Below are positions 32,001 through 47,000 of a stretch of 64,000 bases of DNA, in pieces. The stretch covers positions 38,812,918-38,876,917 of the forward strand of contig CP136062.1 of assembly GCA_032622095.1 (NCBI GenBank), written 5' to 3'. Origin of the DNA: Siphonodentalium dalli. Lineage: Eukaryota; Mollusca; Scaphopoda; Gadilida; Siphonodentaliidae. Under the pieces are notes generated by a model. It saw only the letters and a program-made list of their open reading frames with translations, ran no database searches and was not told where the DNA came from. How positions within the stretch are numbered: the first letter of the stretch is position 1; every line of letters starts with the position of its first letter. A program made the position numbers and the translations under genes.

Positions 32001-35000
32001 TTGTATAAACTTTGGTGCAACTCCCCTCGTGCATGACTTGAACCGCGCCACTTTTGTCATGTTTAAACCACGTCTATTAGACTCATGTATGCATTATATA
32101 ATGGAGATGATTATATATAAGTTTGGTGGTAATCGGCAACTAAACAAATTTTTATCATAGTTATTACCCCCCCCCCCCCATCTCTCACCCAAACGGCACC
32201 AATTTCGCGTCTTTAAATCACACGTTTATATTCCTCGTATCACGGAGAAGAATAATATATCAATTTGGTCGAAATTTGTGCTAAAATAGCCCCTCCCCTG
32301 ACACTCCAGCGGCGCCACTTTTGACATCATTAAACCACACACTTACATGTAGACTCATTATAGAGATGAATATATATATAAAATTTATGAAAATTGGCGG
32401 GTATACAAATTCGTATCAAATTTAGGGCCACCATTGCATATCTCTCACCCAAAATGCACCAATTTGACGCATTTAAACCACACGATTAGATTATTCGTAT
32501 CACGGAGAAGAATATGTATCAACCAGGTGGAAATCGGCGCTAAACATAGTGTTTATCAATGATTGTGTCCCTCTCACCCTCTAGGCACCCCGACTCGAAT
32601 GGTCCCACTTTTGACATCTTTAAACCACACAATTAGACTCCTGATATCATGGAGAATATTATTTGTAAGTTTTGTGCTAATCCGCGACTAAACAAATGTT
32701 TATCAAATTTAGTGCCCACCCCATCCCACCCCATCTCTCACCAAAGAAGCACCAATGTGACGTCTTTTTAAAATCAAACGATTAGATTCCTCATATCATG
32801 GATAAGAATGTGTATCAATTTGGTGGAAATTGGCGCTAAAAATATTGTGTATCAATTTTGGTGCCCCTCTCCCTTTCAGTACACCCTTACTCGAATGACG
32901 CGACTTTTGACAGATTTAAGCCACGCCATTAGACACCTCATACCATGGGATGAATTTGTATAAGTTTCGTGGCAATCGGCGACTAAACCAATTCTTGTCA
33001 GATTTAGTACCCACCCACCACCCCCAAATCTCTCATCCCAACGACACCAATGTGGCGTCTTTAAATCATAAAATAAGATTCCTTGTATCATGGAGAAGAT
33101 ATCAGAAGAATGTGCATCAATTTGGTGGAATTAGGCGCTAAAATTATTTGGTAAATTTTAGTGCCCCTCTCCCTTTCTGTGCATCCCTGAAGCGAACGGT
33201 GCGACTTTTGACACATTTAAACCACACCATTAGATTTCTCATAGTGTGGGGATGATTATATATAAGTTTGGTGGCAATCGGCGACCAATTTTATTTCTGC
33301 CCCTCCCCCTTTCTGCCCCTGACAACAACGGCGTCACTTTAGAAAATTCTAACCATCGCCATTATCTTTCTCGTAAAAAGTTACCCCTATTAGGCCCCTA
33401 TTTTGCCCTTTAGGTAGTCCCCTGTAAATTTCTATAGAACACAGACAGACAGACAGACAGACAGACATTCGCAAATATAGATATAGATACTCTTTATGAC
33501 TCAATACGACATCTACCCGTTCAAAGATGCTCTATCCCTTCTGATTTCAAGACTACACATAACTATTTTATTTGTGAATAAAATACAGATAAAACTGAAG
33601 ATTGGGTACATTATTTATCTATAGAGTCATTATAAAGTTGTTTATTTAGATCGATCTTGGTGAAGTGCAGTGTATCGTGATTGAGATTGTTAACAACTTA
33701 GAGTTGTCTTTCTTGGTACATATTGTATGTTATGAATGCGTTTGCGCGGATTTCTGGCCAAAAAATACCAAAATCTGACCCGCGTAACTGATTAGAAATT
33801 ATAAATAAATTCAATTTATAGAAACTTTTCCGGAAACATTACCTCGAATCATATATATATATATATATAAAACATTCTGGGAAGAGATAGACCATCTTAA
33901 ACAATACTAGTTTATATATATTACTCACCACGAATAGACATATATATTACTCACCACGAATAGACATATATATTACTCACCACGAATAGACATATATATC
34001 ACTCACCACGAACAGACATATATATTACTCACCACGAATAGACATATATATTACTCACCACGAATAGACATATATATTACTCACCACGAATAGACATATA
34101 TATTACTCACCACGAATAGACATATATATTACTCACCACGAATAGACATATATATTACTCACCACGAATAGACATATATATTACTCACCACGAACAGACA
34201 TATATATTACTCACTCACCACGAATAGACATATATATTACTCACCACTAATAGACATATATATTACTCACCACGAATAGACATATATATTACTCACCACG
34301 AACAGACATATTCCAATTACAATCATGCCGATCATCCCACTCAACCACCTAGAGAGAAAACAATGATGGTGATAAAAAATGAACACACAAGACGCTGTAA
34401 GTAATAAGAATAAGAAAAAATATAAATGGATGACAACGAACGACAGGGAGAAACACAATTGATTGGCGCTATAGCATACTGACTTAAACGCGAAGCATAT
34501 TGTTCTGTCCGAATTGGACATCTCTCCAGGGCTAGCCGAACGGCTCTACGTGGCTACCCAAACGGTCTCTGCGAGGCAACTCGAACGGTCTCTACGAGGC
34601 AACTCGAACGGTCTCTACATGACAACTAGAACGGTCTCTACACGCCTACATGAACGGTCTCTGCATGGATATTTGAAGGGTATCTGCGTGGCTACTATAA
34701 CGGCCTCTACGTACGTGGCTACTCGAACGGTCTCTACATGGCTACTAGAACAGTTTCAACATGACAACTCTAACGGAGTCTACATGGCTACTCGACCGGT
34801 CTCAAATGGACAACTCGAACGGTCTCTACGTGGCTACTCGAGTACTCTGTACACGGCTGCTAGAACGGTCTCAACATGGCAACTCGAACGGTCTCAACAT
34901 GACAACTCGAGCGGCCTCTACATGGCTACTCGAACGGTCTCTACATAGCTACTCGAACGGTATCAACCGTAATCTACGTGGCTATCCGAACGGTCTCTAC

Positions 35001-44000: not shown

Positions 44001-47000
44001 TTTCTGGAGAAACCTCGTGTGACCATTATGATTGTGTCCTCAGAAGTACCATCTGGGGTTCTTATAAAGGTTCCCTGACGAACCATGTTCATATTATGGT
44101 TCCCTTAAGAACCATCTCGGGGTTCTTCTGTTGAACCTTATGATATGGTTCTTCAGTAGAACCTTATGATGGGGTCCTTCGAAGCACCAAATAAGGTGCT
44201 CCTATTGTGACAAGGTGAAGAACCTTTTTGGGTTCTCGGAAGGACTTCTGGTTCTAAGAGTGTATATCATATGTTCTTGAATAACAAAGCAGAAGATACA
44301 TTCAGTTCCGCGCGATTTCGGTCAATGGGGAAAGTTACACGATGACGTTGATTGTCGACTATCGTTGAAATCGACATGATGACATGTTATGAATGAAATG
44401 AACATTATGAAATGGACACGCTTCTAAATCTAACCTGCGTATATGAGGCGGAGGGCTCCCCCAGCACGCCAAGTAATATAATGGTTAGTTTCAGTTCCAC
44501 TCTCGACAACATATATAACTATGTATAATCACCCCACCAAACATAAGCCTTATGCATGTGGATCTTATTTGGTGGGAATCTATAAAGTGATTTTGACAAG
44601 AATTATTTTAAACGCTTCATGCAGAAACCACGATGTGAGTGTTTTAACTTTGTTCGTTAATTACGCTTGCATATGATCATATTATATTTATCTTTGAGCC
44701 TTACCAGCAGCAATTATGATATATTTATCTTTGAGCCTTACCAGCAGCAATTATGATATATTTATCTTTGACACTTACCAGCAGCAATTAGGATATATTT
44801 ATCTTTGAGGAGTTCTTTTAACGAGGATCCCTCTTGAACCTCGGGTTTGATGGATGGATTGAGTATCAACAGCTGGAGACCTGCGCAAGTCACAATAATA
44901 TTAGATAAAAACTTTATATACATCGTAAAGTTAGACGAATGCAGTTAGAAGTTGATGACTCTCAGTAGTACATAGCATTGTGTGTCTGTAATTTGCAGAA
45001 TGAGGTCCCAAGAGGGTGAATTTAGTGGCGCTATCCCGCACAGCTATCTAGCATCACCAAATTCACCATCTTGGGACCTCATTCTGCAATACCTCATCTG
45101 CTATGGGAGACATAGATTCAGATTGAAGTTCCCAAAATGGCGAATATTGTGATGTATACACCCATTGGGAACCTCGATTATGCAATTTGTCGTCTGCCAA
45201 TTGGGGGATATAGAGTAAATAAACTAAAAAGAGAAATAGAATCTATATGTGAAGAAGTTTCCATAGAAATTTGATAATAAAGTAACTTTCAAGAGAAGAT
45301 GAGGCATAAACAGACGTCCCCAGAGGGTGAATTTAGTGATGCTAGCCCTTAATTGCAAATTGTTTATATAAATTTCGTTGTACAAACCCATATGGTGGCA
45401 GAATATGAAAAAAAACGTGCATATATACAATGCAACTTCTCATGTTATGTTTGGTAAAGATGCAATGCACATGCAGACTAAGTAACTGTTAAATATGAAG
45501 GAAAAATCATTTGAGTTTCGGAAAAAAATATTTGTTGGAACCATTTGTCCATTCACCTCATACGTGAACGGAAAAAAAAACTAGTTGACCGCGTTAAATA
45601 TTTGTGGTCAGCTACATGTACTGGACTAGATTCATATCAAATAATTTGTAGTGGCTGTAATTAATAAAGTAATATGTTCAAATACGGATTGAGGGGAAAT
45701 TAAGGAAGAGGATAGACAGTAAAGGTGATAAATGGTCTTGCCTATATAAATCATAACCAATGTGTAGAAATAGAACACAAGAGAATGATGCCCTACACGC
45801 TCCAGCTCCCAGGAGAGATGGTGCATGTAGCCACACGTGGTGAGTGACGTGGTGACAGACGGTTCTTGTGGTGTCATACCCACTACCCCCACTCCAGCTC
45901 CCATGAGAAATGGTGCATGTAACCACATGCGGTGAGTGACGTGGCGACAGACGGTTCTTGTGGTGTCATACCCACTACCCCCACTCCAGCTCCCATGAGA
46001 GATGGTGCATGTAACCACATGCGGTGAGTGACGTGGCGACAGACGGTTCTTGTGGTGTCATACCCACTACCCCCACTCCAGCTCCCATGAGAAATGGTGC
46101 ATGTAACCACATGCGGTGAGTGACGTGGCGACAGACGGTTCTTGTGGTGTCATACCCACTACCCCCACTCCAGCTCCCATGAGAGATGGTGCATGTAACC
46201 ACATGCGGTGAGTGACGTGGCGACAGACGGTTCTTGTGGTGTCATACCCACTACCCCCACTCCAGACTTTATGTTGTCATTGTTTTCAGTGTTTGATTTT
46301 TCAACCAATAATTAATTGGTAATTTGTTGTTTTTAAACCAACAGTAGCATATATATATCTACTTTTGGCCATCAGGAAATTTTCCAACCTTAGTGGAGGT
46401 GTCAGGTTGGAAATATCCAATAGTTGGAACTATTCTGGGGACCTAGAAATTTGGTATGGTTCCAGAAGGGGGTGTAATTTAAAGCTTGAATGTGGACACC
46501 CCAACGGGCACCTCTAGCCACGTCCCTGCATGTAGTATTTTTCTGAAAAAAATAGAACAAAGTTCGAGAATGAATGGAATAATTACTTACATCCATCAAA
46601 GAATAATTACTTGCATCCATCAAAGAATAATTACTTACATCCATCAAAGAAGGCTAGAGCAGCTAAAATTAGGAACGGTGCTTCCCGTCCCAAAAACTCG
46701 TACATAACACCTCCGTACGGCGGTCCAACTGAAATGATAAGTTACAAACTCTCGTACATAACAAATCCGTATATTATGGCAATCAAACTCAAATGATAAT
46801 ATATTAAAACTCGTACATAGCACTTGTGTATGTGGTTCATCTGAAATTACAAGATATGAAACAAAAATCATAATTATAAGTATAGTGGTCCAACTGATAA
46901 ATAATATTTTCTCAAGTCTCCCTGTGGGTTCCCATAACACACACAGCTAAATCACCGAGTTGATGGTAATTGCGGTACCACGGTACCACCCTACCAGTCC

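What the first reader, a model, noticed from the sequence alone, without database searches (positions are those of the whole stretch)
33917..46907. Four VMAT exons have tandemly duplicated exon-intron junctions
At the exons at 34297, 44779 and 46639 the donor region is repeated (26 bp x15, 37 bp x3, 24 bp x3), and at 40872 (and degenerately at 46639) the acceptor region is repeated (~107 bp and ~57 bp). In each case the repeat unit contains the last or first exon bases plus the splice site. In the donor-side cases, extension from the true donor quickly meets an in-frame stop or a frameshift, so decoy use should destroy the transcript. One gene with four independent cases is hard to explain by random minisatellite birth. 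It may reflect a splice-site-linked slippage process, or regulated unproductive splicing of a dose-sensitive transporter. Recurrence is seen; the cause is inference.
Basis: partly seen in the sequence, partly recalled or inferred. Interest (0 to 1): 0.85.

Follow-up and report, generated by a model that had tools for sequence, protein, structure and literature searches.

The report
Minisatellites that swallow splice junctions
In a monoamine-transporter gene, several exon ends have been copied over and over into the neighbouring intron together with their splice signals, and a sample of other genes in the same animal genome shows the same thing at roughly one exon end in fifteen, so it looks like a general habit of this genome rather than a special control of this gene.

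Summary
In the VMAT gene (minus strand) three donors lie in head-to-tail arrays (26 bp x15.2, 37 bp x3.4, 24 bp x3.1), one acceptor in a 107-bp array, and a second acceptor in degenerate ~57-bp copies. Each unit carries exon end plus splice site; using a downstream donor gives a stop or frameshift.

It is not VMAT-specific. Among 225 hand-picked exons of conserved genes elsewhere in this genome, arrays span the donor in 15 (13 with at least 2.5 copies), the acceptor in 5. Plain array coverage at donors equals that of introns (6.7% vs 6.4%). Against a stricter null (a point lying in an array's first unit, the only harmless position) donors exceed introns about 3-fold (7-fold for multi-copy arrays); acceptors do not. 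The excess comes from the first 160 exons (14); a second set of 65 gave 1.

A near-identical second VMAT copy has 17.2 instead of 15.2 and 3 instead of 4 units, so two arrays behave like VNTRs; two dynein paralogues show an empty site. The architecture is known singly from human ABCA7 and IFI6. Best reading: short tandem duplications across junctions, tolerated if the first donor is used. Regulation is unsupported; a donor-linked mutational bias remains open.

The parts
25500..60450 (-). VMAT (SLC18-type vesicular monoamine transporter) gene; 11 exons located in the window (around 60380, 53350, 51277, 46639-46728, 44779-44880, 40872-40967, 37000, 34297-34348, 30433, 27944, 25555; first and last exons and at least one between 60380 and 53350 not found)
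   Evidence: PDB vesicular amine transporter hits; exon motifs; exon-by-exon genome matches
33914..34311 (-). 26-bp x 15.2 array spanning the donor of exon i; 15 donor copies of equal score, unit about 15 bp exon + 11 bp intron
   Evidence: 17.2 copies in the second VMAT copy
34297..34348 (-). exon i ([17 protein letters not shown])
40931..41369 (-). 107-bp x 4 array (dimer of ~49 and ~58 bp) spanning the acceptor of exon g; six upstream junction-like copies, each running into a stop when read from its AG
   Evidence: 3 copies in the second VMAT copy
40872..40967 (-). exon g ([32 protein letters not shown])
44683..44809 (-). 37-bp x 3.4 array spanning the donor of exon f; unit about 30 bp exon + 7 bp intron
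   Evidence: unchanged in the second VMAT copy
44779..44880 (-). exon f ([34 protein letters not shown])
46577..46651 (-). 24-bp x 3.1 array spanning the donor of exon e; unit about 13 bp exon + 11 bp intron; middle copy has GC instead of GT
   Evidence: unchanged in the second VMAT copy
46639..46728 (-). exon e ([29 protein letters not shown])
46729..46850 (-). two degenerate copies (about 60% alike) of the acceptor region of exon e, at -54 and -113

Best explanation
These are minisatellites born by short tandem duplication of a segment that happened to include an exon-intron junction, then grown and shrunk by units. They are one local instance of a genome-wide class. A duplication across a donor leaves the first donor in its old place, so as long as splicing takes the donor nearest the exon (the exon-definition preference) the protein is unchanged and the extra copies are removed with the intron. 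Duplications inside exons change the protein and are lost. The arrays at the 26-bp donor and the 107-bp acceptor are length-unstable; the decoy sites are mostly silent by-products, at most a weak drain on transcript yield. Shown: the anatomy, the copy-number difference between two VMAT copies, an empty site in two dynein paralogues, occurrence in other genes. Inferred: that the first donor is used, that birth was by tandem duplication in VMAT itself, and that there is no function. This reading leaves open whether donors also suffer more such births (first rival); the two are not exclusive.
For: Anatomy. Same architecture at 15 of 225 other donors, with up to 14 donor copies, one of them without its GT. 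Empty site: the 28-bp x4 array at a dynein donor (L050) is absent from both paralogues aligned, where the same exon end is single. Copy-number change: second VMAT copy 17.2 vs 15.2 and 3 vs 4 units, while the stretches around the other two junctions are 99.9 and 100% alike; kinesin trio 14.5, 14.5, 11.5 units. Exon midpoints almost never repeated (1 of 225). Upstream donor preferred under exon definition when sites are of like strength (PMC9225289, abstract and section 6 read). Array units that are a multiple of 3 are commoner at donors (8 of 15) than in introns (15 of 70), p 0.022, as if decoy use were mildly selected against.
Against: No RNA evidence: which donor is used is not shown. In the 15 cases the called first donor lies within 21 bases of the end of the family match, but the call was confined to that neighbourhood, so this is weak support. 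Pure tolerance predicts no excess over the first-unit null, yet the pool shows 15 of 225 against 2.2%. Array donors are not in longer introns (12 with a known neighbour, p 0.93; neighbour list incomplete), so intron length does not support the exon-definition part, and three lie in gaps of 0.5-0.7 kb. Human ABCA7 shows that a unit can be retained and that array length can alter splicing (PMC5954066).
Confidence: 0.7

Rival explanations
1. Donor-linked mutational bias: tandem duplication or its expansion is several times more frequent at splice donors (or at exon ends) than in intron DNA, through some feature of donors or of exon DNA in the germ line.
For: Pool: donors 15 of 225 vs first-unit intron coverage 2.17%, ratio 3.1 (locus bootstrap 1.6-5.0), p 1.4e-4; at least 2.5 copies 13 of 225 vs 0.77%, ratio 7.5 (3.4-15.2), p 3e-8; at least 95% identity 8 of 225 vs 0.33%, p 1e-6. 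Free of TRF: 14 of 222 donors vs 121 of 12628 intron points, p 4.6e-8. Set 1 array starts: 12 in 9.6 kb in the last 60 bp before the match end vs 3 in 16 kb in the next 100 bp. G+C does not account for it: intron starts 0.27 per kb in the 40-50% bin and 0.9 in the 50-60% bin, exon mean 44.5% (set 1).
Against: Second sample 1 of 65 donors vs 1.9% (p 0.71); the two sets differ at p 0.073 and kinesins carry 8 of 15 (p 0.033). Plain coverage shows no excess: 15 of 225 vs 6.4%; the first-unit null was chosen after set 1 had shown that. Constraint on the first copy can double the time an array stays recognisable. Acceptors show no excess (3 of 212 vs 1.2%). Several thresholds were tried.
Confidence: 0.4
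2. Regulated unproductive splicing: the decoy donors and acceptors in VMAT are kept because their use lowers transporter dose.
For: Decoy use would give a stop or frameshift at all three donors, and each of the six upstream acceptor copies at exon g runs into a stop when read from its AG.
Against: The same arrangement is found in kinesin, chaperonin and dynein genes; two of the arrays differ in copy number between near-identical VMAT copies; one decoy has lost its GT and two are weaker than the first donor.
Confidence: 0.05
3. Chance only: in a genome rich in minisatellites, arrays overlap junctions as often as any other intron point, and VMAT was picked because it had several.
For: Plain coverage at donors 6.7% vs 6.4% in introns in the pool, 9.4% vs 6.5-7.8% in set 1; acceptors near background (3 of 160 vs 2.5%; 2 of 65 vs 1.7%; 3 of 212 vs 1.2%); second sample shows no donor excess. 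At a 6.7% donor rate, 3 of about 11 located VMAT donors is only a mild outlier for a gene chosen afterwards.
Against: An array covers a donor harmlessly only with its first unit, so plain coverage is too generous a null; against the first-unit null the pool exceeds chance.
Confidence: 0.35
4. Assembly artefact.
For: The VMAT locus has a near-identical inverted second copy about 1 Mb away, which could be a misplaced haplotype.
Against: Units within arrays differ by point variants and 2-4 base indels, arrays occur at many unrelated loci, and two of four arrays are the same in both VMAT copies.
Confidence: 0.03

Closest known systems
Human ABCA7 intron 18 VNTR (25-bp unit, PMC5954066; passages and the Discussion read)
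   Same: Tandem array that begins at and includes the exon's splice donor; a downstream unit can serve as donor; retention of one unit gives a frameshift; variable length.
   Different: There the array begins with the GT and lies in the intron, and its length goes with exon skipping and lower expression; here the unit also holds coding exon bases, several junctions of one gene and other genes are affected, and no RNA data exist.
Human IFI6 (6-16) donor minisatellite (Turri 1995; only its title in a reference list and one sentence in PMC4526556 seen; the paper itself is not held)
   Same: Repeat units used as splice donor sites at an exon end.
   Different: There two downstream units are used, giving three mRNAs; its 12-bp unit and copy number are recalled. 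Here units are 23-90 bp and mostly give stops or frameshifts.
Polyubiquitin UBC dual-specific splice sites in tandem repeats (PMC10809524; passages read)
   Same: Splice sites repeated with a tandem unit.
   Different: There the repeats code for protein and sites act as donor and acceptor; here the extra copies lie in the intron.
[quoted passage not shown] PMC4974935, listing only)
   Same: Tandem duplication of exon sequence with a splice motif.
   Different: There a new intron about one unit long results; here the intron existed and grew at its end.

Membership tests
Donor-spanning VNTR (ABCA7 type) | Tandem array covering the splice donor, extra donor copies downstream | tested here: met
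   Three VMAT donors; 15 of 225 sampled donors
Donor-spanning VNTR (ABCA7 type) | Variable copy number | tested here: met
   26-bp array 17.2 vs 15.2 units between two VMAT copies; the 37-bp and 24-bp donor arrays did not differ. Between individuals not tested
Donor-spanning VNTR (ABCA7 type) | Downstream units used as donors in RNA, length affects splicing | not testable with these tools
   No RNA data held
Regulated unproductive splicing | Decoy use introduces a premature stop or frameshift | tested here: met
Regulated unproductive splicing | Decoys conserved or kept strong | tested here: inconclusive
   15 of 15 donors equal at exon i; both decoys at exon f weaker than the first; one of two lost at exon e; no related species at hand
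Intron gain by tandem duplication | Array makes up the whole intron and ends at the acceptor | tested here: not met
   VMAT donor arrays end inside introns of about 1.8-4 kb
Mobile element carrying tandem repeats | Unit found at unrelated loci | tested here: not met
   26-bp and 107-bp arrays match only the two VMAT copies closely; weak 66-70% matches of the 26-bp array elsewhere. The 37-bp and 24-bp arrays were not searched

The most novel reading that the evidence does not exclude
In this genome splice donors are true hot spots for the birth and growth of minisatellites: young multi-copy arrays start at donors 5 to 20 times more often than in intron DNA, by a process tied to the donor or to exon ends, so that about one exon in fifteen carries an array of near-identical competing donors that the spliceosome must ignore.
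Probability: 0.3. Interest if true: 0.8.

Novelty: new variant of a known kind. Interest (0 to 1): 0.55.

Why it matters
Single donor-spanning VNTRs are known in human genes and one is tied to disease risk. A genome in which several percent of donors sit in such arrays would be a natural experiment on how a spliceosome chooses among 3 to 15 near-equal donors, would test the exon-definition proximity rule with identical sites, and would show a large source of copy-number variation at junctions. If the donor excess holds genome-wide it would point to a mutational process tied to splice sites, which is not expected from plain slippage.

Tried and rejected
Unit breakpoints looked skewed (exon part median 31 bp, intron part 12.5 bp over 18 arrays including the three of VMAT, p 0.007), which would suggest a donor-anchored break; dropped because TRF reports the leftmost start, so any microhomology is counted as exon. 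Donor strength: no difference between array donors and the rest of set 1 (p 0.99). Intron phase: 12 of 15 array donors in phase 0 vs 119 of 210 others, p 0.10. Donor-like motifs in 76 intron arrays: about twofold over random intron at score 6 on both strands alike, rank test p 0.25, so no sign of a strand-specific process. G+C: bins tested in set 1, no sufficient explanation; the very AT-rich bins had the highest rates on few bases. Intron length: no association. Dispersed unit: rejected for two arrays. Organism: not named; a search for the molluscan haemocyanin domain found nothing, which the tool says does not show absence; a literature search for a chiton genome gave no match I could use.

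Rows dropped and choices made: set 1 took 160 of 335 matches (42 of 53 chaperonin, 9 of 92 SNF, 47 of 67 dynein AAA_8, 62 of 123 kinesin), picked by hand, leaving out recent duplicates that I recognised and many matches with stops; 20 of the 160 still had a stop inside the match, so some junction calls may be wrong. Set 2 took 12 of 88 myosin and 53 of 89 DHC_N2 matches, the latter from clusters of exons close together, so it leans to short introns. Junctions were called with a consensus matrix recalled from memory, near the match ends only. Other exons in the flanks were not masked in the intron null. Controls and donors lie in the same loci, so binomial p values are rough; the locus bootstrap is the fairer figure. 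At the match end donors were 15 of 160, by called junction 14 of 160. The first-unit null was adopted after plain coverage had shown no clear excess. The neighbour distances use an incomplete list to which I added matches by hand, some of them next to array donors.
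Full report
What is there. The window is part of a 2.23-Gb genome (G000, nine contigs), an animal's to judge by the gene. The gene on the minus strand is a vesicular monoamine transporter: two joined exons matched 16 PDB sequences, best vesicular amine transporters, and 11 exons were located. Three donors and two acceptors lie in repeats. 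The 26-bp array has 15 donor copies of equal score, the 37-bp array three, the 24-bp array three of which one has lost its GT; the 107-bp array is a dimer and gives six upstream acceptor-like copies; the other acceptor has two degenerate copies. Use of the second donor would give a stop at +14 or +5, or a 26-base shift with a stop at +27. Each of the six upstream acceptor copies at exon g runs into a stop when read from its AG.

Is it more than chance? I sampled exons of conserved families from the same genome. In set 1 (160 exons) arrays of period 10 or more span the donor in 14 and the acceptor in 3. Plain coverage is not clearly raised: 15 of 160 at the match end against 7.8% downstream and 6.5% upstream in introns; in the pool 15 of 225 against 6.4%. 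But an array covering a donor leaves the message intact only if the donor lies in its first unit, so the fair null is the share of intron points in a first unit: 2.24% in set 1 (p 1.7e-5), 0.78% for arrays of at least 2.5 copies (12 of 160), 0.38% for arrays of at least 95% identity (7 of 160); among arrays under 90% identity there is no significant excess (4 of 160 vs 1.24%, p 0.14). I adopted this null after seeing plain coverage.

Second sample. Set 2 (65 exons) gave 1 donor and 2 acceptors; the first-unit share was 1.9% (donors p 0.71). It was drawn mainly from closely spaced dynein exons. The sets differ at p 0.073. Pooled: 15 of 225 donors, ratio 3.1 (bootstrap 1.6-5.0); multi-copy arrays 13 of 225, ratio 7.5 (3.4-15.2). 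A test without TRF gave 14 of 222 donors against 121 of 12628 intron points, 3 of 212 acceptors against 157 of 12628, and 1 of 225 exon midpoints. Kinesins carry 8 of the 15. Because the first copy is held by selection, an array there stays recognisable up to twice as long; a ratio of about 2 needs no mutational bias. I therefore regard occurrence in many genes as shown and a donor-specific bias as open.

How the arrays behave. VMAT has a second, inverted copy about 1 Mb away on the same contig. Around two junctions the copies are 99.9 and 100% identical, arrays included (37 and 24 bp); the 26-bp array has 17.2 units there and 15.2 here, and the 107-bp array 3 and 4. A kinesin array has 14.5, 14.5 and 11.5 units in three genes whose compared flanks are 97-100% alike. 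A dynein donor array of four 28-bp units is absent from two paralogues, whose exon end is single. The two VMAT arrays searched are not dispersed elements.

How it works. Birth by short tandem duplication across the junction, then change by units (inferred for VMAT, seen as an empty site in the dynein case). A copy of the donor placed downstream is harmless if splicing takes the first. Carranza and colleagues (PMC9225289, abstract and section 6) report that with sites of like strength the upstream donor is preferred under exon definition and the downstream one under intron definition. In the 15 sampled cases the next donor copy would give a stop or frameshift in 11, an in-frame insertion in 3 (L015, L125, and L018 through its third copy, the second having lost its GT) and has lost its GT in 1 (L148) (my reading). 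Units divisible by three are commoner at donors than in introns (8 of 15 vs 15 of 70, p 0.022), a hint that decoys are sometimes used. Intron length did not separate array donors from others, which does not favour a strict exon-definition account.

Known kinds. Human ABCA7 has a 25-bp VNTR that includes the exon 18 donor; one unit can be retained, giving a frameshift, and length goes with exon 19 skipping and lower expression (PMC5954066, passages and Discussion). IFI6 uses repeat units as donors (one sentence). I noticed no report of such arrays across a genome in the listings of searches of an open-access library; that is weak evidence of absence. VMAT's arrays are thus of a known kind; what is unusual is their number in one gene and across genes.

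Noticed in passing
G000:C2:37868500-37949252 (+) against window (-): Inverted, near-identical second copy of the VMAT gene about 1 Mb away; one exon occurs four times (also at 37947137 and 38787982). Segmental duplication or misplaced haplotype.
   Followed up: partly
G000:C2:113173188-113195337 and G000:C5:175886546-175887400: A third, more distant VMAT-like gene (34-67% identity), and a long uninterrupted open frame (539 aa) resembling VMAT (43-49% identity).
   Followed up: no
34521-35444: Large degenerate 23/46/69-bp array about 170 bp upstream of exon i, on the other side of the exon from the 26-bp array.
   Followed up: no
56957-57850 and 45800-46265: Further large arrays (36 bp x 24.8; 92 bp x 5.1) in the window; 54 TRF rows in 64 kb.
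   Followed up: no
for example ORFs from 50131, 56810, 60133, 27676 (minus-strand frames): A peptide-like stretch ([20 protein letters not shown]) recurs in many minus-strand frames of the window, probably a dispersed repeat.
   Followed up: no
G000:C4:274219458-275508405: Cluster of about eleven places with very similar Myosin_head exon matches, probably tandem muscle-myosin-like genes.
   Followed up: no
L125:700-1175: The 30-bp kinesin donor array ends with a partial copy holding the exon end but no donor, as if an exon segment had first been copied into the intron.
   Followed up: partly
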